DNA of 64,000 nucleotides from contig ONBB01000001.1 of NCBI GenBank assembly GCA_900315935.1, forward strand, positions 186,001 to 250,000. The letters run 5' to 3'. Positions 44,300-54,770 of the stretch are shown piece after piece. The translations under genes and the position numbers were made by a program. The notes below the pieces were generated by a model that had not been told where the DNA came from, did no database searches, and worked only from the letters and a program-made list of their open reading frames with translations. Position 1 is the first letter of the stretch; each line of letters starts with the position of its first letter. The DNA is from an uncultured Bacteroidales bacterium. Lineage in GTDB: Bacteria; Bacteroidota; Bacteroidia; Bacteroidales; P3.

Positions 44300-45637
44300 A
44301 TGAGAATATCCGTAGCAGGTACCGGCTATGTCGGTCTCAGTATTGCCACCCTGTTGGCGCAGCACAATGATGTTACCTCCGTCGATGTGGTCAAGGAGCG
44401 CGTCGACTTGGTGAACAACAAGAAGTCGCCTATCCAGGACGACTATATCGAGGAGTATCTGGCCACCAGACCCCTCTCGCTTCACGCCACCCTCGATCAG
44501 GAGGCCGGCTACCGCGATGCCGAGTTCGTCGTCATCGCCGCCCCCACCAACTACGACAGCCAGAAGAACTTCTTCGACACCTCCGCTGTGGAGGCTGTCA
44601 TTGATGCTGTGCTGAAGGTCAACCCCGACGCCGTGATGGTCATCAAAAGCACCATCCCCGTGGGCTACACCCGCTCGTTGTATGTTAAATACCAGAAGCA
44701 GGGTGTGAAGAAGTTCAATCTTCTCTTTAGCCCCGAGTTCTTGCGTGAGAGCAAGGCCCTATACGACAACCTCTACCCTAGCCGTATCATCGTCGGCATC
44801 CCCAAGATGATGCCCGGTGCCGAATATCAGGAGGAAAACGAGGCTATCAAGGCTCTCTCCGACATCGACTGGCTCACGGAGCGCGCCCAGGTATTCGCCC
44901 GTCTGCTGCAAGATGCGGCTATCAAGGAAGATGTCCCGACCCTCTTCGTCGGATTGAAGGAGGCCGAGGCGGTGAAACTCTTCGCCAACACCTATTTGGC
45001 CTTGCGCGTCAGTTACTTCAATGAACTCGACACCTACGCCGAAATGAAAGGCCTCGACACGCAAGCCATCATCGACGGCATCGGTCTCGACCCCCGCATT
45101 GGCACCCACTATAACAACCCCAGCTTTGGCTACGGTGGCTACTGCCTACCCAAGGACACCAAGCAGCTCCTTGCCAACTACGAGGATGTCCCGCAGAACA
45201 TGATGTCCGCCATCGTCGAGAGCAATCGCACAAGGAAAGACTTCATCGCCGACCAAGTCCTCAAGATGGCCGGCTACTACGCCTACACTGAAAATAACGA
45301 ATACACTCCAAACACTCAAGCAATCAAGCAATCAAACACTCAAGCACTACCTGTACCCACCATCGGTGTCTACCGCCTGACGATGAAATCGAACTCAGAC
45401 AATTTCCGCCAGAGTGCAATCCAAGGTGTGATGAAACGCATCAAGGCCAAAGGCGCCCAGGTCATCATCTACGAACCTACGTTGGAAGACGGCACCACCT
45501 TCTTCGGCAGCCTGGTGGTCAACGACCTCGCCACCTTCAAGTCCCGCAGCAACGCCATCATCGCAAATCGCTACGACTCCTGCCTCGACGACGTCCAGCA
45601 GAAGGTCTACACCCGCGACATTTTCCGTCGCGATTGA
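44300..45637 (+). CDS. UDP-glucose/nucleotide-sugar 6-dehydrogenase
   Basis: 445 residues, oxidises UDP-glucose (or a related nucleotide sugar) to the uronate. NAD-binding GTGYVG at residues 7-12, [22 protein letters not shown], and the catalytic Cys282 in [11 protein letters not shown]. The C-terminal UDP-binding domain is complete. Between the central helix and that domain, residues about 335-350 ([17 protein letters not shown]) are encoded by a degenerate 8-bp array in frame. First gene of the capsule-like locus, with a good promoter upstream. I leave the symbol open because UDP-glucose versus UDP-GlcNAc/ManNAc specificity is not certain. Confidence 0.9.
45301..45348. repeat. in-frame 8-bp array inside the dehydrogenase gene
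   Basis: Units AACACTCA, AGCAATCA, AGCAATCA, AACACTCA. A shorter array of the same unit lies in frame in the mannose-1-phosphate guanylyltransferase gene (55305-55337). Confidence 0.85.
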
Positions 45638-47725: not shown

Positions 47726-48190
47726 ATGCAAGATTTGGTTTCATTTTGCTATAGTCATTCAATAGATTCGACTTTTGATTTAAGTCATTATTTGAACGAC
47801 GAAATGGGCGTTGAGCAGTTGAAAGCTATTAATGGTATTGGCAATAAAACTTGTGACAATTTGAAGAGGTTGTTGGGATTCGATACCGTTGCAGTTGATA
47901 GGCATATTCGTGACTTCCTTGTTGCTGCTGATATTTTATATGATGATTATTTTGATATAAAAGAAGTTGTAGAGTATGCAGCTGATTTTATGGAAACAGC
48001 ACGACGAACGCTTGATTATAGCATATGGTCTTATATGTCATCAAAAAGGAAAAACAAAGGTGAATTACTACTTGATTTAGTATTTCTGAATAACAACAGC
48101 GCCCCTCCAGGTCTTTACGCGCAGCCGGTGGTCGCTGATGGGGCAGGAGGGTCTTCCACACAGCCCACACCGCTCCAAGAAATAGTCTGA
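47726..48190 (+). CDS. HhH DNA glycosylase-like fragment fused to repeat R3
   Basis: 154 residues, clearly A/T-richer than its surroundings up to about 48090. Residues 30-65 have the helix-hairpin-helix and catalytic pattern of endonuclease III-like enzymes (LKAINGIGNKTCDNLKRLL, then VAVDRHIRDFLVAAD, with Asp in VDRH). From about residue 125 the sequence (NNSAPPGLYAQPVVADG...) is translated repeat R3, so the true C-terminus is replaced. The N-terminal part of a normal glycosylase is missing. I take it as a degraded gene. Confidence 0.6.
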   Translation: MQDLVSFCYSHSIDSTFDLSHYLNDEMGVEQLKAINGIGNKTCDNLKRLLGFDTVAVDRHIRDFLVAADILYDDYFDIKEVVEYAADFMETARRTLDYSIWSYMSSKRKNKGELLLDLVFLNNNSAPPGLYAQPVVADGAGGSSTQPTPLQEIV

Positions 48191-48256
48191 CAAGGATCGG
48201 GGTGAGGATAACATCTTAACTTATCCGTCTTCCATCTGACATCAAACGAGGAGGTG
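48099..48256. repeat. direct repeat R3, copy 1, left boundary of the unfamiliar gene block
   Basis: From GCGCCCC through GGTCTTTACGCGCAGCC, GGTGGTCGCTGATGGGGC, CACACAGCCCACACCGC to CTTCCATCTGACATCAAACG. About 85 percent alike to copy 2 (54619-54768) by eye, same orientation, 6.5 kb apart. Confidence 0.88.
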
Positions 48257-48360: not shown

Positions 48361-49116
48361 ATGATTAACGTTGGAATTATCGGCTGTGGCTTCGTTGGCG
48401 GAGCCCTCAAAGATTGGTTGGAACATAATAATCAAGAGTGCAAACTCTTCATCAGCGACCCTCCCAAGGGTTACAACGACGACCTGAGTAATGTGGACAT
48501 CGCCTTCCTGCAGATTCACGTCCCCACCGAGGACGATGGCACACAGGACCTGCGTCTTATGACGGAGCTCATCAAGAAACTCCCTAATGTGCCCGTCTTC
48601 GTGCGTACCACCATCCTCCCTGGCACCAGCGACCGTCTCTCCAAGGAGACCGGCCACCAGGTGTGCTACATGCCCGAGTTCCTCACCGAGCGCACCCATA
48701 TCGAGGACTTTAAGAAGCAGACCATGGTCTTCACCGGCGCTCACGAGCTGCTCACCAAGATTTTTGTGGGCAAGAAGTTCACCGTGATGACCCCCATCGA
48801 GGCCGAGCTCACCAAGTACATGCACAATGTGTTCGGAGCCTATAAGGTCACCTACTTCAACGCCTGCCGCGAATACTGCGAGCTGATGGGGGCTGACTGG
48901 CGCAAGGTGCACACGGGTGTGCTCCTGTCTGGTTATATCAACGACACCCACACCTACGTTCCCGGCCCCGACGGCAAGTTCGGCTATGGCGGCAAGTGCT
49001 TCCCCAAGGATGTCAATGCCTTCGCCAAGATGACCGAAGGCACTCCCCTCGGCACCCTGCTGCAGCACTTGCATGAGCTGAACGTCCATTTCCGTGGGGT
49101 GGAGGAGCATATCTGA
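48361..49116 (+). CDS. UDP-sugar dehydrogenase family protein lacking the C-terminal domain
   Basis: 251 residues. NAD-binding IIGCGFVGG at 7-14, PEFLTERTHIEDF, central-domain ELTKYMHNVFGAYKVTYFNACREYCELMG and catalytic Cys213 in GYGGKCFPKD. It ends at residue 251, without the UDP-binding third domain that a complete dehydrogenase needs for dimer contact and substrate. Short forms like this occur in phage and capsule loci. It follows 170 bp after R3 and begins the block of unfamiliar genes. It may act with, or compete with, the complete dehydrogenase at 44300. Confidence 0.85.
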   Translation: MINVGIIGCGFVGGALKDWLEHNNQECKLFISDPPKGYNDDLSNVDIAFLQIHVPTEDDGTQDLRLMTELIKKLPNVPVFVRTTILPGTSDRLSKETGHQVCYMPEFLTERTHIEDFKKQTMVFTGAHELLTKIFVGKKFTVMTPIEAELTKYMHNVFGAYKVTYFNACREYCELMGADWRKVHTGVLLSGYINDTHTYVPGPDGKFGYGGKCFPKDVNAFAKMTEGTPLGTLLQHLHELNVHFRGVEEHI

Positions 49117-49261: not shown

Positions 49262-50257
49262 ATGGCCACAAAACTCCGTTTGGAAATCCATCGCATAGCT
49301 TTGCAACATCTGGTTGTGAAGGATAAGGGCAAGTCGTGGGAAGACTGCAACTTCTCCGAGCTGATTGACCTTTTCGACAAGAACGACAAGCAGAAGGCTC
49401 TTGCAATGCTGTGGACTAAGTTCGTGGAGCAGTTTGGCGACAAGTTTGTGGTCAATACCGATGGCGACAAGGCGGTTACTGCTACCGACAGCTGCCAGCA
49501 CACGGTGTCGCCCCTGAAGAATGTCATCAACGGCGAAGTGTATGGCGGCACCACCAACCGCGAACAGTCCATCTACAAGCGCAAGAACGCCAAGAAATCG
49601 ACCAACACGGTGGCTGCCGACGATGTGGTATCGTCCAACTTCTACATCAAGATGTGGCTGCCCTACGACTACACCACCGGTGCGTTGATGATACAGAGCT
49701 ATTCAACGTCGAATATCTCTGACCTGGTAAAGGTGCATTTCGCAAAGTTTGTGCAGAAATACCAGTTCCGTCTGGGCGTTACTTCCTACTACCCCAAAAC
49801 CTTTATGGAGGAGCGCAACAAGCGAAGCGAGGTGGTGTCGGTGACCTATGTGAAGGACAAACTCTCCAAGGGTAGCCTCCGCCTCATCAATCCGCTATTT
49901 GCCAACCTCGAAGGACTGAGAATTAAGGTGGAGATTACAGGCTTCAGGAAGTCAGTCAATGATTTTTGGAAGCTGTTCAAAAAGAATGGACGCTCGTTGG
50001 ATGCCGACATCGACCCGCTTGCCCTCAAGAAGGATGACAAGGATGTTACGGTGATGGCCAAATATGTGGATGAGGAAGGCCGTTCCACCACGATGAACCT
50101 CGACCAAGACCGCATCCGCAACTTTGCCTACTATTTGTTGCCTGAAGAGGTGATGCTAAAGGATAAGAATACCTACGACTTCATGGAAATCAGCAAACAC
50201 ACCGACTCCATTCTTGAAACCATCAAGAAAGAGATAGGTTACACCAAAACCAAGTAG
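49262..50257 (+). CDS. hypothetical protein, 331 aa (first gene of candidate three-gene system)
   Basis: No signal peptide or membrane segment. The N-terminal 80 residues are helical (LRLEIHRIALQHLVVKDKGKSW); the middle (about 130-260) alternates strands and helices (MLPYDYTTGALMIQSYSTSNIS-like and LVKVHFAKFVQKYQF, LRIKVEITGFRKSVNDFWKLF); the end is helical and charged. The layout (a beta-rich central sensor-like region) resembles cytosolic components of defence systems, but I recognise no family. Operon: 2-bp gap to the 4-TM gene and then 6-bp gap to the NdpA-type gene. G+C content intermediate. Confidence 0.7.
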   Translation: MATKLRLEIHRIALQHLVVKDKGKSWEDCNFSELIDLFDKNDKQKALAMLWTKFVEQFGDKFVVNTDGDKAVTATDSCQHTVSPLKNVINGEVYGGTTNREQSIYKRKNAKKSTNTVAADDVVSSNFYIKMWLPYDYTTGALMIQSYSTSNISDLVKVHFAKFVQKYQFRLGVTSYYPKTFMEERNKRSEVVSVTYVKDKLSKGSLRLINPLFANLEGLRIKVEITGFRKSVNDFWKLFKKNGRSLDADIDPLALKKDDKDVTVMAKYVDEEGRSTTMNLDQDRIRNFAYYLLPEEVMLKDKNTYDFMEISKHTDSILETIKKEIGYTKTK

Positions 50258-50259
50258 CC

Positions 50260-50760
50260 ATGAGAGAGATTATTTCCAAAGCATGGGCCTCATTGATCAA
50301 GGAGAGGTTTTGGTTTATCATTGTGCCGACGGTACTTGCCCTTGCGGTGGGTTGCCTCACATGGTTTTCAGATAGCGAGGTGAAAGTGTTCGCCGATGTG
50401 ATTGGCTCCATCGGCATCTTCTCGGCCTTGATGTTTTCGGTGATTTTCATTGTGGTGGAACATTTCCTGAAGCGGCGTATGGACTACAGCAGCGACAATG
50501 AGGAGGATAAGCGGTATGTAGAAAACTACCAGGAGTTCACCAAAGAAGTGGTCACACGCATTTCCTTCTCCATCTTTTTGGCTGGTTTGATTATTGTGTT
50601 GGCCTTCATCCTGCCGCAGTTGCCTTTCACCAACAAATGGTATTTGGTCATTCGCAACACGGTCTTTGTGTTTCTGCTGCTCCAGTATGCCGGACTCATT
50701 ATCATAGTAGTGAAGGGCATGTATGCGATGCTGATTGACGACACCGAGCAAAAAAAATAA
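50260..50760 (+). CDS. four-TM membrane protein, 166 aa (second gene of candidate system)
   Basis: Hydrophobic segments at about residues 17-36, 45-67, 100-120 and 127-155, with a charged cytosolic loop (FLKRRMDYSSDNEEDKRYVEN) between segments 2 and 3 and a charged C-terminus. No homology that I can name. The size and plan recall membrane subunits of two- or three-gene defence systems such as KwaA of Kiwa (4 TM), but the sequence match is not established. Confidence 0.75.
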   Translation: MREIISKAWASLIKERFWFIIVPTVLALAVGCLTWFSDSEVKVFADVIGSIGIFSALMFSVIFIVVEHFLKRRMDYSSDNEEDKRYVENYQEFTKEVVTRISFSIFLAGLIIVLAFILPQLPFTNKWYLVIRNTVFVFLLLQYAGLIIIVVKGMYAMLIDDTEQKK

Positions 50761-50766
50761 AGAACA

Positions 50767-51810
50767 ATGGCTTTTATAACCGAAATAACCCAACTCCAAC
50801 AAGCCTGCCTGCACCATATCGGCAGCAGGGCCGCCGACGAGGGCATCGTGCTTTCATGTGAGCCTCTGCTGCTCGACGAGGCTTCGCTGAAGAACCTCTT
50901 TACCTATTGCCTCTCGTCGTTCAAGGAGGGCGAGACCTTCTGCTTCCACAACGAGCTGGGCTTGCAGTTCAACGAAGCCTGCGCTTGCGTGGAAAAGCTG
51001 TTTGCCGACCCGCAAACCATAGTGGAGCAGTCACGGAACCTGGCCAAGGTGCTGTATGAACATAGCGAACATCCCGGCATCAAGAGTGGCGACTTGATAG
51101 TGGCCTATTTCACCGATTGTCAAATCAATGGCTACATTACTGATGCCGTGGGCCTGTATAAATGCGAGAACCCTACCAGTTTCCTCTCAGTGGTGTGCGA
51201 GGCCGACAATGCCCACATCACAACCCTGCAAGGACTGGACCTGAAGCATGTGGACAAAGCCGCCTTGATTTTCAATACCGATGCCGATGAGGGATACCGC
51301 ATGGCCATCATCGACAACACCAACCGCACCGAGGCCAAATATTGGGTTGACGATTTCTTGCAGGCCAAGCCTTGTGCCGACGAGTATCAGCATACCCGCA
51401 CCTTCCTCAACGCCACCAAAGCCTTTATCACCAATGAGCTGCCGACCACGCAGGAAGTGTCGCGCGGCGAGCAGGCCGAGCTGATGGACAAAGCCCTACG
51501 CTACTTCAAGGAGAACGACACCTTCGCCATGTACGACTTCAACCAGCAGGTGATGGGCGACGAGTCGCTCTCTGCCGACTTTGGGCTGTATGTGGATGAC
51601 TATATGGCTAAGAACGACTTGGAGCCTGCCGAAAGCTTCGCCATATCGGAGAGTGCCGTGAAGAAGTCGCAACGCTCCATGAAGAGCGTCATTAAGCTCG
51701 ACCGCAACTTCCACATCTATGTGCATGGCGGCGAGGGACTGATTAAGAAAGGCTACGACGAAGAGACTGGGATGGAGTATTACCAGTTGTATTTCAAGAA
51801 GGAAGAATAG
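50767..51810 (+). CDS. nucleoid-associated protein, NdpA/37-kDa family (third gene of candidate system)
   Basis: 347 residues. Family pattern: VDKAALIFNTDADEGYRMAI, TEAKYWVDDFLQ, the middle YQHTRTFLNATKAFI, and the C-terminal block SAVKKSQRSMKSVIKLDRNFHIYVHGGEGLIKKGYD (in segments), ending YYQLYFKKEE. NdpA proteins bind nucleoid DNA with little sequence preference. The presence of the gene in an accessory block, coupled to a 4-TM gene and an unknown gene, is unlike the lone ndpA of enterobacteria. Probably a DNA-contacting or DNA-sensing component; this is inference. Confidence 0.85.
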   Translation: MAFITEITQLQQACLHHIGSRAADEGIVLSCEPLLLDEASLKNLFTYCLSSFKEGETFCFHNELGLQFNEACACVEKLFADPQTIVEQSRNLAKVLYEHSEHPGIKSGDLIVAYFTDCQINGYITDAVGLYKCENPTSFLSVVCEADNAHITTLQGLDLKHVDKAALIFNTDADEGYRMAIIDNTNRTEAKYWVDDFLQAKPCADEYQHTRTFLNATKAFITNELPTTQEVSRGEQAELMDKALRYFKENDTFAMYDFNQQVMGDESLSADFGLYVDDYMAKNDLEPAESFAISESAVKKSQRSMKSVIKLDRNFHIYVHGGEGLIKKGYDEETGMEYYQLYFKKEE

Positions 51811-51830: not shown

Positions 51831-52343
51831 ATGGACAATAAACCACTAGATTATCACATACAGAAAGGATGGGTAATATTCCTATTCATTTTCTATACAA
51901 TGATTGTGTTGGTTGGGATAACACTTTTATTGTACATACTTATTGAGAAAATGACAGGCCAGTTAGGACAGGATGATGTTAAGACCTTTACTTTTTATGT
52001 ATCTATGCTTGCGAGTACTATGATGACAGGTGTTAGGTATTCACAAAAGCTATACAAGGCGTGTATTGATGGTAGAGTGACATTTGACAACAGCAACAAG
52101 TCGGTTGTTATTGGCAATGTCATATATTTCCTGTTGCGACCACTGTATTCTGTTGCATTTTCTGTTCTTTTTGTTATCTGTTTTTTGGGGGGCATTAAAT
52201 TTTTAGGTGGTGGGATGGATTGTGTCATTAACGAGCGCATGGTTTATTTGGCAGCTATTGCGTCGGGATTTATTGGTTACTCCATCGGCAATGTTTTGGA
52301 TATTTTTGAGATAGTGAGCAAAGACCATGTCGGTAAAATGTAA
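51831..52343 (+). CDS. four-TM membrane protein, 170 aa
   Basis: Hydrophobic segments at about residues 13-37, 48-66, 92-125 and 138-158. No conserved motif that I know. Clearly A/T-richer than the previous three genes, so it starts a second transfer unit. The following kinase-NUDIX gene begins 6 bp after the stop, indicating a joint transcript. Possibly the membrane effector of a small defence module. Confidence 0.72.
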   Translation: MDNKPLDYHIQKGWVIFLFIFYTMIVLVGITLLLYILIEKMTGQLGQDDVKTFTFYVSMLASTMMTGVRYSQKLYKACIDGRVTFDNSNKSVVIGNVIYFLLRPLYSVAFSVLFVICFLGGIKFLGGGMDCVINERMVYLAAIASGFIGYSIGNVLDIFEIVSKDHVGKM

Positions 52344-52348
52344 TAATT

Positions 52349-53722
52349 ATGGTAAAAGAAGACGAAAGAAAAAAGATCATAAATGACCTTCAATCTCTGG
52401 CGGAGACTGTCCATGCACTGAAAGAACAGCATCGGCAGAAGCATCCTATTGTTATTGAGTTTAGCGGTTCTCCAAAGGCAGGAAAGACATCCAGTATCAA
52501 TTCCTTGGAATTGTTTCTTAAAAGGAATGGTTTCAAGGTTAAAGTAGTTCAGGAGAGAGCGAGCGTTTGTCCTGTAACTGACAAACAAAGCCCGATGTTT
52601 AATATTTGGACAGCATGTATGTCTCTTGCTGGAATGTTGGGAACACTTGAGGAGAAAAGCAGTAATATCGATGTTTTGATTCTCGACCGTGGTATCTTTG
52701 ATGCCTTATGTTGGTTTGAATGGCTATATTCTTATGGTAAGATGGATCGGCAACTAAAGGAAAGCGTGGAGGCTTTCTTGTTGCAGAAGGAATTCGTAAA
52801 ATCTATAGACATAGTGTTTGCATTCAAAACAACACCTGAAACATCTATCGAAAGAGAATATGCTAATCTTCTAACAGATAAACTTGGCTCCATTATGAAC
52901 CCTCGTGTTTTGCAGACATACCTCGGTGCTATTGAAAAGACTCATAGAGAGAAAGAAAACAAGTTTCAAAAGGTTTTCATTATTGATACAACTACGAGAA
53001 CACAAGATGAAGTTGGTAAAGATGTAACAGAGAAGACACTAAACACACTCAGGGATGTTTTGATGGAGCGCATTGGTTTCTTTAAGAAAACCGACGAACT
53101 TATGGGAATTTTGAATCAGAAAAGTTTCTTTTTGTACGATGAACTAAAACAGCAGTTTGATACCAATCAGATAGCCTTTGATTACCGTGAAGATGTGGAA
53201 AAACAAGATTCACTCTTGCAGCCAATCCCAATAGCGGTTATAACAAACACAAAAAACCGGGTTCTTGTAGTAAAAAAGAGTAATATTTCCAGTTCTGAAA
53301 AATCACCTGAGAAAGACCGAGTGTTGCCGTATGTAGGCGGACATACCAGACGGGAAGACATTATACCAGGTAAAAAAGAAGATTTTCTCGACATTTGTAA
53401 AACAACACTTAAAAGAGAGATACAGGAAGAGATAGGTATCTCAGTGTCGTTAGACAATATTATTCCTGATATAATTTATACTCCAACAGTTGAAAAAAGT
53501 AAAAAACACTTGGCAATTTGTTTCAGGGTGACTGTGGAGGAAGATACTAAACTTCGGTTGGATGCAGAAGAGTTAGTTCAGAAAAAAGGTGTTAGTAAGA
53601 GTGGAAGATTCCTAACAACCGAAGAGTTGAACAACGAGCCTCTTGAAGATTGGGGTAAAATGATAATGAAAAAATACTTTAAGATAGAGCAATATACATT
53701 GTTCAACAACGATAATCAGTAA
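52349..53722 (+). CDS. P-loop kinase fused to NUDIX hydrolase
   Basis: 457 residues in two domains. Residues 30-240 are a thymidylate/deoxynucleoside-kinase-like P-loop fold: Walker A GSPKAGKTSS at 40-49, a Walker B-like strand with DRG at 113-115 (VLILDRGIFDAL). Residues 290-440 form a NUDIX domain: VGGHTRRED at 329-337 and the Nudix helix KREIQEEIGI at 355-364; the box is off by one from the textbook spacing (G341-x6-D348-x7-REIQEEIGI). The fusion would both phosphorylate or bind a nucleotide-like ligand and hydrolyse a nucleoside diphosphate linkage. I know no named family with this fusion. Confidence 0.82.
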   Translation: MVKEDERKKIINDLQSLAETVHALKEQHRQKHPIVIEFSGSPKAGKTSSINSLELFLKRNGFKVKVVQERASVCPVTDKQSPMFNIWTACMSLAGMLGTLEEKSSNIDVLILDRGIFDALCWFEWLYSYGKMDRQLKESVEAFLLQKEFVKSIDIVFAFKTTPETSIEREYANLLTDKLGSIMNPRVLQTYLGAIEKTHREKENKFQKVFIIDTTTRTQDEVGKDVTEKTLNTLRDVLMERIGFFKKTDELMGILNQKSFFLYDELKQQFDTNQIAFDYREDVEKQDSLLQPIPIAVITNTKNRVLVVKKSNISSSEKSPEKDRVLPYVGGHTRREDIIPGKKEDFLDICKTTLKREIQEEIGISVSLDNIIPDIIYTPTVEKSKKHLAICFRVTVEEDTKLRLDAEELVQKKGVSKSGRFLTTEELNNEPLEDWGKMIMKKYFKIEQYTLFNNDNQ

Positions 53723-53757
53723 TATTTATTTCTTCACTGAATTAAAAACTGTGTGAA

Positions 53758-54192
53758 ATGAAGATAATAAGAAAGAAAAAGCACGAGGAAGCATTATTAG
53801 TCCAATTAATAGAAGAAAAAGAAAAAAATGCAAATCTTGCAGGATATGGACATCTTCCAAAAGCACCGAAAGAGAAAGTGGTTAATGTACCCAATTCCTC
53901 AGATTATAAAGAGCCCAATAACAATACCTGTATAGGCTATTGGGAAGATATTTCTGGTTGCGAATTAAAAGATAATCTTACATATTATTGCCCGTCTTGC
54001 CAGAAAACAATGAGCAAAAAGGACTCAACTCTCGATGGTGCACATGTGTATAAATCAAGTAATAATAAAGAATGGTATTTTGTGCCACTTTGCAACAAAT
54101 GCAATAACTCTGAGAATACAGATGTAATGGAGGTTGATACTGTTTTGGTACCAGTTCCCTCTGAGTGTTATGAAAAGAAATCAGAAAAGTAA
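53758..54192 (+). CDS. HNH-like zinc-finger protein, 144 aa
   Basis: Residues 75-125 hold CPSCQKTM, TLDGAHVYK and FVPLCNKCNN: two CxxC zinc knuckles around an HNH-like DxAH core, as in small HNH/McrA-type nucleases; the second and third catalytic residues are less clear (Asn in CNN). N-terminal 50 residues are charged and helical. Follows the kinase-NUDIX gene by 35 bp, A/T-rich like it, so probably the third gene of the same unit. May be an active endonuclease or a zinc scaffold. Confidence 0.68.
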   Translation: MKIIRKKKHEEALLVQLIEEKEKNANLAGYGHLPKAPKEKVVNVPNSSDYKEPNNNTCIGYWEDISGCELKDNLTYYCPSCQKTMSKKDSTLDGAHVYKSSNNKEWYFVPLCNKCNNSENTDVMEVDTVLVPVPSECYEKKSEK

Positions 54193-54272
54193 AAACAACA
54201 TCTTACACCTTCCTTCTTACATCATACATCTAACGCGGCCTCCCGGTCTTTACACCCAGCTGCACACCAAAT
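54193..54272. repeat. partial copy of repeat R3 with degenerate leader
   Basis: CATCTTACACCTTCCTTCTTACATC-type degenerate heptamers, then AACGCGGCCTCCCGGTCTTTACACCCAGCTG, related to the start of R3 but only about 40 bp long. Confidence 0.55.
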
Positions 54273-54290
54273 ATTAAAACAGATCAAACT

Positions 54291-54584
54291 ATGACAACCA
54301 ACAATAAACCGATAGAGGTGAAGTATTCCGACTCGAAGCTCCGTATCCTTGTTGAGGAGTACATCACCATGCAGAAGCAGGAGTTTACTTTCAAAGACCT
54401 TTGTTCTTATGTCCTTTATTGGGCAAAGGAGGAAGGAAAGACTGTCAATACAGGGCTCTATGAAAGCAATGAATTTGATACTGCTGATGGCGACTGCCTC
54501 GCTCGGATCCCGGAAAAGATTAAACAAGAAGGTCGCATCGTTGTTGCTGATAACAATACAATATTTTTGAAGACGAAGGAGTAA
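54291..54584 (+). CDS. hypothetical protein, 97 aa
   Basis: No membrane or signal segment; begins MTTNNKPIEVKYSDSK and ends TIFLKTKE. Predominantly helical with a possible winged-helix plan (FTFKDLCSYVLYWAKEEGK, then GRIVVADNNTIFLK as a hairpin). No family recognised. It lies between two copies of R3, so it may be the passenger of a short element of its own. Confidence 0.65.
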   Translation: MTTNNKPIEVKYSDSKLRILVEEYITMQKQEFTFKDLCSYVLYWAKEEGKTVNTGLYESNEFDTADGDCLARIPEKIKQEGRIVVADNNTIFLKTKE

Positions 54585-54770
54585 AACATCATACATCTTA
54601 CGTCAGACATCAAACGAAGCGCCCCGGTCTTTACGCGCGGCCGGTGGTCGCTGATGGGGCAGGAGGGTCATCCACACAGCCCACACCGCCCCATGAAATG
54701 GTCTGAGATGGGATGGGGGAGGAGGACAGACATCTTGCCTCATCCCTCTTCCATCAGACATTTAATGGAT
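54585..54770. repeat. direct repeat R3, copy 2, right boundary of the unfamiliar gene block
   Basis: Begins with heptamers CATCATA, CATCTTA, CGTCAGA, CATCAAA, then from 54619 the R3 body, ending CTTCCATCAGACATTTAATGG. Fills most of the 237-bp gap before manC. Confidence 0.88.

What the first reader, a model, noticed from the sequence alone, without database searches (positions are those of the whole stretch)
49262..51810. Candidate undescribed three-gene system: 331-aa protein, 4-TM protein, NdpA-type nucleoid-associated protein
Seen: three genes with gaps of 2 and 6 bp, inside an accessory block bounded by direct repeats, between a dehydrogenase gene and a second unfamiliar unit. Known: NdpA proteins bind DNA; several defence systems couple a 4-TM membrane protein with a DNA-contacting cytosolic protein (Kiwa KwaA/KwaB is one). 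Inferred: this trio may detect DNA entry and act at the membrane. I recognise neither of the first two proteins, so a new system is plausible.
Basis: partly seen in the sequence, partly recalled or inferred. Interest (0 to 1): 0.85.

Follow-up and report, generated by a model that had tools for sequence, protein, structure and literature searches.

The report
Rex-like phage-exclusion trio with nucleoid protein
Three adjacent genes in a Bacteroidales genome look like a distant relative of prophage exclusion systems, in which a cytosolic sensor opens a membrane protein to stop a phage infection, joined here by a nucleoid protein that seems to be a reusable extra part.

Summary
The three genes are real and at the stated coordinates: A (331 aa), B (166 aa, 4 hydrophobic segments), C (347 aa, NA37/YejK family; fold match to E. 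coli YejK). A and B alone match no curated family. Profile comparison ties A to the validated exclusion proteins CarolAnn gp44/Sbash gp30 (probability 92.5%, E 4.7e-7; 0 of 50 shuffles) and, more weakly, to DUF4747 (0 of 60). A membrane-protein gene lies directly behind A in 16 of 17 loci. So A+B is a divergent Bacteroidota member of the RexAB/CarolAnn-type exclusion class; it matched no Kiwa model. C is an optional third gene: present in 8 of 17 A loci, 5 of 12 groups after merging close copies. NA37 genes also sit behind three other cytosolic/membrane pairs (DUF4747, DUF6731-like, 'type II') and behind a RelA/SpoT protein. That NA37 link is what looks new. Most likely mechanism: A, helped by C, senses infection and gates B, damaging the membrane (abortive infection). 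Homology is shown; activity, trigger and the role of C are inferred. Sequence kinship to lambda RexA/RexB was not shown.

The parts
49262..50257 (+). Gene A, 331 aa, cytosolic, RexA-like/CarolAnn gp44-like putative sensor
   Evidence: ORF; no family match alone; profile match to CarolAnn gp44/Sbash gp30 family, prob 92.5%, E 4.7e-7, 0 of 50 shuffles; AF2 model pLDDT 77.1, pTM 0.72
50260..50760 (+). Gene B, 166 aa, membrane protein with 4 hydrophobic segments, putative pore/effector
   Evidence: ORF; segments at 12-30, 41-59, 101-119, 133-151; B profile matches the membrane partners of DUF4747 and type II pairs (0 of 60 shuffles each)
50767..51810 (+). Gene C, 347 aa, NA37/YejK-type nucleoid-associated protein, optional third component
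   Evidence: PF04245 117.2 bits; AF2 model pLDDT 85.7, pTM 0.79; Foldseek to YejK 9be2, E 2.1e-10
48107..48202 (+). Left copy of the 96-nt direct repeat bounding the accessory block
   Evidence: 89% identical to the right copy; genome copies
54623..54718 (+). Right copy of the 96-nt direct repeat bounding the accessory block

Best explanation
The locus is a RexAB/CarolAnn-type phage-exclusion (abortive-infection) system extended by an NA37 protein. Shown: A is homologous, at profile level, to the cytosolic component of validated two-gene exclusion systems; B is a small membrane protein encoded right behind it and shares ancestry with the membrane partners of related pairs; C is a YejK-type protein, and NA37 genes stand behind four kinds of such pairs. 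Inferred: A is a DNA-contacting sensor set off by phage DNA or an early phage protein, which then opens B; B depolarises or permeabilises the inner membrane and the infection fails. C most likely belongs to the sensing side: a DNA-bound adaptor that reports phage DNA or disturbed DNA topology to A, or holds A inactive on the nucleoid until infection. C is unlikely to be the effector because it is optional and shared among unlike partners.
For: A vs CarolAnn/Sbash family: local prob 92.5%, E 4.7e-7; global, full length, scores 38.3/53.2 against a shuffled maximum of 7.9 in 50, 0 of 40 in a repeat. A vs DUF4747 and vs type II: 0 of 60 shuffles each. Membrane gene directly behind A in 16 of 17 loci. 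B vs the partners of DUF4747 and of type II: 0 of 60 each; an unrelated membrane protein of the window does not match (20 of 60). AF2 topology of A agrees with the published text description of RexA. C: NA37 and YejK fold. The trio order recurs in 5 of 12 A groups and with other cytosolic families. Restriction-type genes beside A loci picked by eye. Sbash/CarolAnn pairs: both genes needed, channel model proposed (passages).
Against: No profile match of A to lambda RexA or of B to RexB; RexA not among the 50 PDB rows shown and no PDB hit at E 0.001. The B match to CarolAnn gp43 relatives is weak (7 of 50 shuffles with three sequences; 0 of 40 with four, but E 0.11-0.15). The DUF4747 and CarolAnn profiles do not match each other here (31 of 50). 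C is absent from 9 of 17 A loci, and most NA37 genes seen are not in tight operons (52 of 80 have no same-strand gene within 15 bp upstream, 6 more have no upstream gene on the contig). No phage assay exists for this family.
Confidence: 0.7

Rival explanations
1. A+B is the complete exclusion system, and C is a separate gene (for example a topoisomerase-modulating or silencing nucleoid protein useful to mobile islands) that merely travels beside it.
For: 9 of 17 A loci lack C; most of the 80 NA37 loci are not in tight operons; NA37 proteins elsewhere act on topoisomerases (passages).
Against: When present, C follows B at -4 to +11 bp in all 8 A-found trio loci; NA37 stands in the same position behind at least three other cytosolic/membrane pairs.
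Confidence: 0.2
2. The trio is a plasmid- or island-maintenance (toxin-antitoxin-like) module, with B as toxin and A or C as the restraining part, and phage exclusion is secondary.
For: Related pairs lie on mobile elements: L126 beside integrases, L129 beside mobilisation-type genes and an integrase (read by eye); a RexB protein suppresses growth when activated (abstract passage).
Against: The validated homologues of A act in phage exclusion (passages); restriction-type neighbours (loci chosen by eye).
Confidence: 0.05
3. The trio has a housekeeping or envelope role linked to the polysaccharide genes around it.
For: The window's copy lies in a polysaccharide gene region, as do L008, L009 and L012 (by eye).
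Against: Other copies lie beside restriction-type genes or on mobile elements; rarity: 6 of 190, 8 of 393 (one spurious) and 5 of 395 genomes.
Confidence: 0.05

Closest known systems
CarolAnn gp44/gp43 and Sbash gp30/gp31 (RexAB-like prophage exclusion; the 'DUF4747/CarolAnn' class of PMC13373217)
   Same: Cytosolic protein plus small four-helix membrane protein encoded directly behind it; A homologous by profile
   Different: Bacteroidota chromosome and not an actinophage; often a third NA37 gene; B match weak
Lambda RexA/RexB and Pseudomonas putida RexAB
   Same: Architecture and gene order; AF2 topology of A agrees with the published description of RexA
   Different: No sequence-profile match for A-RexA or B-RexB; lambda rexAB has no NA37 gene in the stretch fetched
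E. coli YejK and the YejK-domain defence system of DefensePredictor (PMC13092281)
   Same: C is the same family and fold; a YejK-domain system has been validated in defence (passages)
   Different: Gene make-up of that system could not be seen, so whether it has an A/B-like pair is unknown
Kiwa (KwaA/KwaB)
   Same: Four-helix membrane protein plus DNA-contacting protein (recalled)
   Different: No Kiwa model matched by A or B or their relatives (that PADLOC holds Kiwa models is recalled)

Membership tests
CarolAnn/Sbash-type (RexAB-like) exclusion system | Cytosolic component homologous to CarolAnn gp44/Sbash gp30 | tested here: met
   prob 92.5%, E 4.7e-7; 0 of 50 and 0 of 40 shuffles
CarolAnn/Sbash-type (RexAB-like) exclusion system | Four-helix membrane protein encoded next to it | tested here: met
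   4 hydrophobic segments, gap 2 bp; same in most relatives
CarolAnn/Sbash-type (RexAB-like) exclusion system | Membrane component homologous to gp43/gp31 | tested here: inconclusive
   7 of 50 shuffles reach the score with three sequences; 0 of 40 with four, E 0.11-0.15
CarolAnn/Sbash-type (RexAB-like) exclusion system | Both genes needed for exclusion; membrane depolarisation | not testable with these tools
   needs phage assays
Lambda RexAB proper | Sequence homology to RexA and RexB | tested here: not met
   A-RexA 12 of 60 and B-RexB 25 of 60 shuffles at or above the score
Lambda RexAB proper | RexA fold (split globular domain with four-strand, four-helix insertion) | tested here: inconclusive
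   AF2 element order agrees with the text of PMC11077077 section 18; Foldseek shows no RexA in the 50 rows printed; the finer aligner was not available
DUF4747 | Pfam match above cut-off | tested here: not met
   no match for A or relatives; distant profile kinship only (0 of 60). L037, a different trio, does match
NA37/YejK | Pfam match above cut-off and YejK fold | tested here: met
   117.2 bits; 9be2 E 2.1e-10
NA37/YejK | Nucleoid binding, effect on topoisomerases | not testable with these tools
   known for YejK and StaR (passages)
Kiwa | KwaA/KwaB model match | tested here: not met
   PADLOC at E up to 1; presence of Kiwa models in the library is recalled

The most novel reading that the evidence does not exclude
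NA37 proteins are a general, exchangeable sensing module of Bacteroidota immunity: one DNA-bound protein wired to different killers, namely several Rex-like cytosolic/membrane pairs (A, DUF4747, DUF6731-like, type II), a RelA/SpoT-domain protein with an NA37 paralogue, and other paired genes, so that phage-induced changes in DNA or its topology trigger whichever effector is present.
Probability: 0.4. Interest if true: 0.8.

Novelty: new variant of a known kind. Interest (0 to 1): 0.6.

Why it matters
It carries the RexAB/CarolAnn exclusion class, of which a 2026 paper counts only five described systems (passage), into Bacteroidota, where the family libraries searched here do not recognise it. 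It also gives a nucleoid-associated protein family a concrete, testable partner: if NA37 reports infection to Rex-like pairs, the open question of what activates RexA-type sensors can be tested by removing or swapping one gene.

Tried and rejected
Kiwa: no model match. Direct homology to lambda RexA/RexB: not found by profile. Profile comparisons against one or two sequences were uninformative, and local A vs DUF4747 gave only E 0.045. Sequence search of solved structures: the A4 profile gave two chance-level hits, a DUF4747 member and the C profile none. Relatives of the window's A in viral contigs, plasmids and phages: none by single sequence; viral scans with A12, A13, A7, A8, A11 gave none, A14 gave one. 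DUF4747 in 247 Bacteroidales genomes: 0 (the control genomes did not ring either, so no proof of absence), in 145 genomes of another class: 3. DUF6731-like profile (2 rows) in 198 genomes: 0 (not proof of absence). No match of the DUF6731-like member to plasmids.

Rows dropped before counting: G344 (59 residues, E 7.8e-5), because the match lies in a 435-aa frame that does not look like A and has no B behind it. L115 is kept among the 17 although it has no convincing B. L085's gene was left out of one control profile because my coordinates held a stop. In one comparison (B of DUF6731-like vs B of A) a shuffle gave an outlying 129.1 (1 of 50 at or above), so I do not use that pair. Butters gp30 returned no row against A.

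Full report
What is there. Three plus-strand genes: A 49262-50257 (331 aa), B 50260-50760 (166 aa), C 50767-51810 (347 aa), gaps 2 and 6 bp. They follow a nucleotide-sugar dehydrogenase gene (48361-49116) and precede a second unit. A 96-nt direct repeat, 89% identical, bounds the block at 48107 and 54623; the genome holds one more partial copy on the same contig. G+C is 0.50, 0.47 and 0.54 for A, B, C, 0.55 for the window and 0.34-0.37 for three genes of the second unit, which suggests that the two units arrived separately. In L008 the trio is followed by other genes, in L009 by the same second unit.

Single-protein searches. A: no family in Pfam, PADLOC or NCBIfam at E up to 1. B: only sub-threshold transporter-like hits in Pfam and NCBIfam and none in PADLOC. 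C: NA37, 117.2 bits, the only NA37 match in the genome.

Relatives of A. Family level: 6 of 190 genomes. Order level, with the distant member L012 as query: 8 of 393, one of which (G344) I dropped as spurious. Phylum level, with the profile A4: 5 of 395. The own genome is counted in each of the three. Viral contigs: 1 locus. That makes 17 loci. Neighbours: a gene with membrane segments lies at -20 to +11 bp in 16 of 17, with four or more segments by a crude count in 14; L022 has a short, apparently broken copy, L126 counts three, L115 has no convincing partner. C follows in 8 of 17: window, L008, L009, L010, L011, L012, L021, L025. Merging copies at 60% identity or more leaves 12 groups, 5 with C. 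Trio members outside the window's own group are 17-39% identical to it in A and 32-43% in C. So A+B is the core; C is frequent but optional.

What A is. A profile of 16 A proteins matches a profile of CarolAnn gp44, Sbash gp30, a Sejanus protein annotated 'RexA family abortive infection protein' and a Rhodococcus plasmid protein: probability 92.5%, E 4.7e-7 over 194 columns. In global mode the match runs full length (1-327 with 1-333), scores 38.3 and 53.2 in the two directions, E 3.7e-7 and 6.8e-10, against a maximum of 7.9 in 50 column shuffles; repeated, 0 of 40. A also matches, more weakly, a DUF4747 profile (14.5 and 21.4; shuffled maximum 10.5, 0 of 60) and a set I call type II (19.5 and 22.1; shuffled maximum 10.8, 0 of 60). 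The 14 other profiles compared with A gave at most 9.5, RexA and the DUF6731-like set included. A does not match lambda RexA (12 of 60 shuffles reach the score); type II vs RexA is inconclusive (4 of 60). Against my reading: the DUF4747 and CarolAnn profiles do not match one another here (31 of 50), although the papers report a weak HHpred link (passages).

Fold of A. AlphaFold2: pLDDT 77.1, pTM 0.72. Strands 169-175, 189-199, 220-231, 262-270 and helices 179-187, 203-209, 211-215, 232-242 lie between the N-terminal strands and a last long helix, which fits the RexA description of a split globular domain interrupted by a four-stranded sheet with four helices (section 18 of PMC11077077, read whole; other passages). 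This is a comparison of element order by eye. Foldseek against PDB found nothing at E 0.001; RexA is not in the 50 rows shown; rank 5 is a chain of a centromere complex, 8ovw_N, E 0.03, which I recall to be Chl4, a protein that the RexA paper names as structural kin. Against viral models there were 6 hits at E 0.001 or better, best 9.1e-14, none with a named function. Six of 16 A members match PHROG 15676, unknown function, best E 8.8e-9; the window protein matches no PHROG.

What B is. The profile of 14 B proteins matches the membrane partners of DUF4747 (21.6 against a shuffled maximum of 7.7) and of type II (35.4 against 10.9); type II matches the DUF6731-like partners (34.3 against 12.9); an unrelated membrane protein of the window does not match (3.1; 20 of 60). 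The match to CarolAnn gp43 relatives is weak, and RexB does not match (25 of 60).

What C is, and with whom it travels. AF2 pLDDT 85.7, pTM 0.79; best PDB hit YejK 9be2, E 2.1e-10. In 22 of the 80 a same-strand gene lies within 15 bp upstream; in 34 the nearest same-strand upstream gene is further off, in 18 it is on the other strand, in 6 the contig has none. In 7 of 80 (L028, L037, L058, L064, L078, L081, L103) the upstream gene is a membrane protein of 161-213 aa behind a cytosolic gene of about 300-330 aa (cut by the contig end in L058). Of these seven only L081 has A by profile. The others: DUF4747 (L037, E 6.9e-27), DUF6731-like (L103, 23.4 bits, below the cut-off of 27; L064 60% identical; L058 by eye) and type II (L028, L078). 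A search with type II found 2 of 198 genomes: L129, a further trio beside mobilisation-type genes and an integrase, and L130, a pair without C. In L073 the NA37 gene follows a RelA/SpoT-domain protein (E 9.4e-20) and an NA37 paralogue (E 1.4e-15). The seven were found through C, so they show the variety of partners and not its frequency.

Setting. In seven loci picked by eye, all 10 neighbour proteins scanned matched DNA-methylase, specificity, MutH-type or AAA families: restriction-type genes in L010, L011, L021, L023, L113; ATPases in L008 and L009. A Hymenobacter plasmid has annotated restriction genes directly before a DUF4747 gene and a small hypothetical gene.

Mechanism. In Sbash and CarolAnn both genes are needed, and a channel opened by the cytosolic protein is proposed (passages; PMC6426596, PMC6426606, PMC7542560). 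In Butters the cytosolic protein itself seems to be the effector (passages), so the division of labour can differ. A Pseudomonas RexAB pair damages the membrane when activated and its RexA binds DNA (passages; PMC12894663). YejK inhibits gyrase and topoisomerase IV, and StaR activates topoisomerase I (passages; PMC10053502). I propose that A senses, B opens the membrane, and C links A to DNA. The first two steps rest on homology, the last on gene order only.

Novelty. Searches for DUF4747; DUF6731; RexA with crystal structure and phage exclusion; NA37, nucleoid-associated, defense system (two of three); YejK with abortive infection; CarolAnn with defense system and transmembrane; NdpA or YejK showed, in the listings seen (capped lists), no description of a RexAB-like pair with an NA37 partner. 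The library lacks preprints and most subscription papers. PMC13373217 names a DUF4747/CarolAnn class behind capKS genes in 17 cases (passages). DefensePredictor (PMC13092281, passages only) validated a system with a YejK domain; its gene make-up was not visible to me. Hence: new variant of a known kind.

Noticed in passing
window 51831-54584: Second unit: 170-aa membrane protein, 457-aa P-loop (AAA_28-like, sub-threshold) plus NUDIX fusion, 144-aa protein with weak HNH-like matches, 97-aa protein. Low G+C (0.34-0.42); the first three also follow the trio in L009 but not in L008. Possibly a second defence-like module.
   Followed up: partly
L073 268-3349 (and perhaps L085): NA37 paralogue, RelA/SpoT-domain protein and NA37 in one tight operon; L085 has genes of similar size in the same order, not scanned. 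Could be an alarmone-type conflict system.
   Followed up: partly
L059, L068, L071, L107, genes just upstream of NA37: A recurring pair (about 310-320 aa and 374-383 aa) directly before NA37; no Pfam family for the L059 members. Nuclease-like by eye only.
   Followed up: partly
L031 7518-11020: A 348-aa protein that aligns to NA37 at 16% identity, a 475-aa protein with about 3 membrane segments, then NA37; L090 looks similar.
   Followed up: no
window 44300-45637 and 48361-49116: Two nucleotide-sugar dehydrogenase-like genes about 4 kb apart; the second is only 251 aa and matches the family models in part.
   Followed up: no
window 47726-48190: 154-aa ORF with weak helix-hairpin-helix/8-oxoguanine glycosylase-like matches (E 0.0005-0.03); its 3' end is part of the 96-nt repeat.
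   Followed up: no
L022 8425-8700: The B gene behind A is short (91 aa, 2 segments) and looks broken.
   Followed up: no
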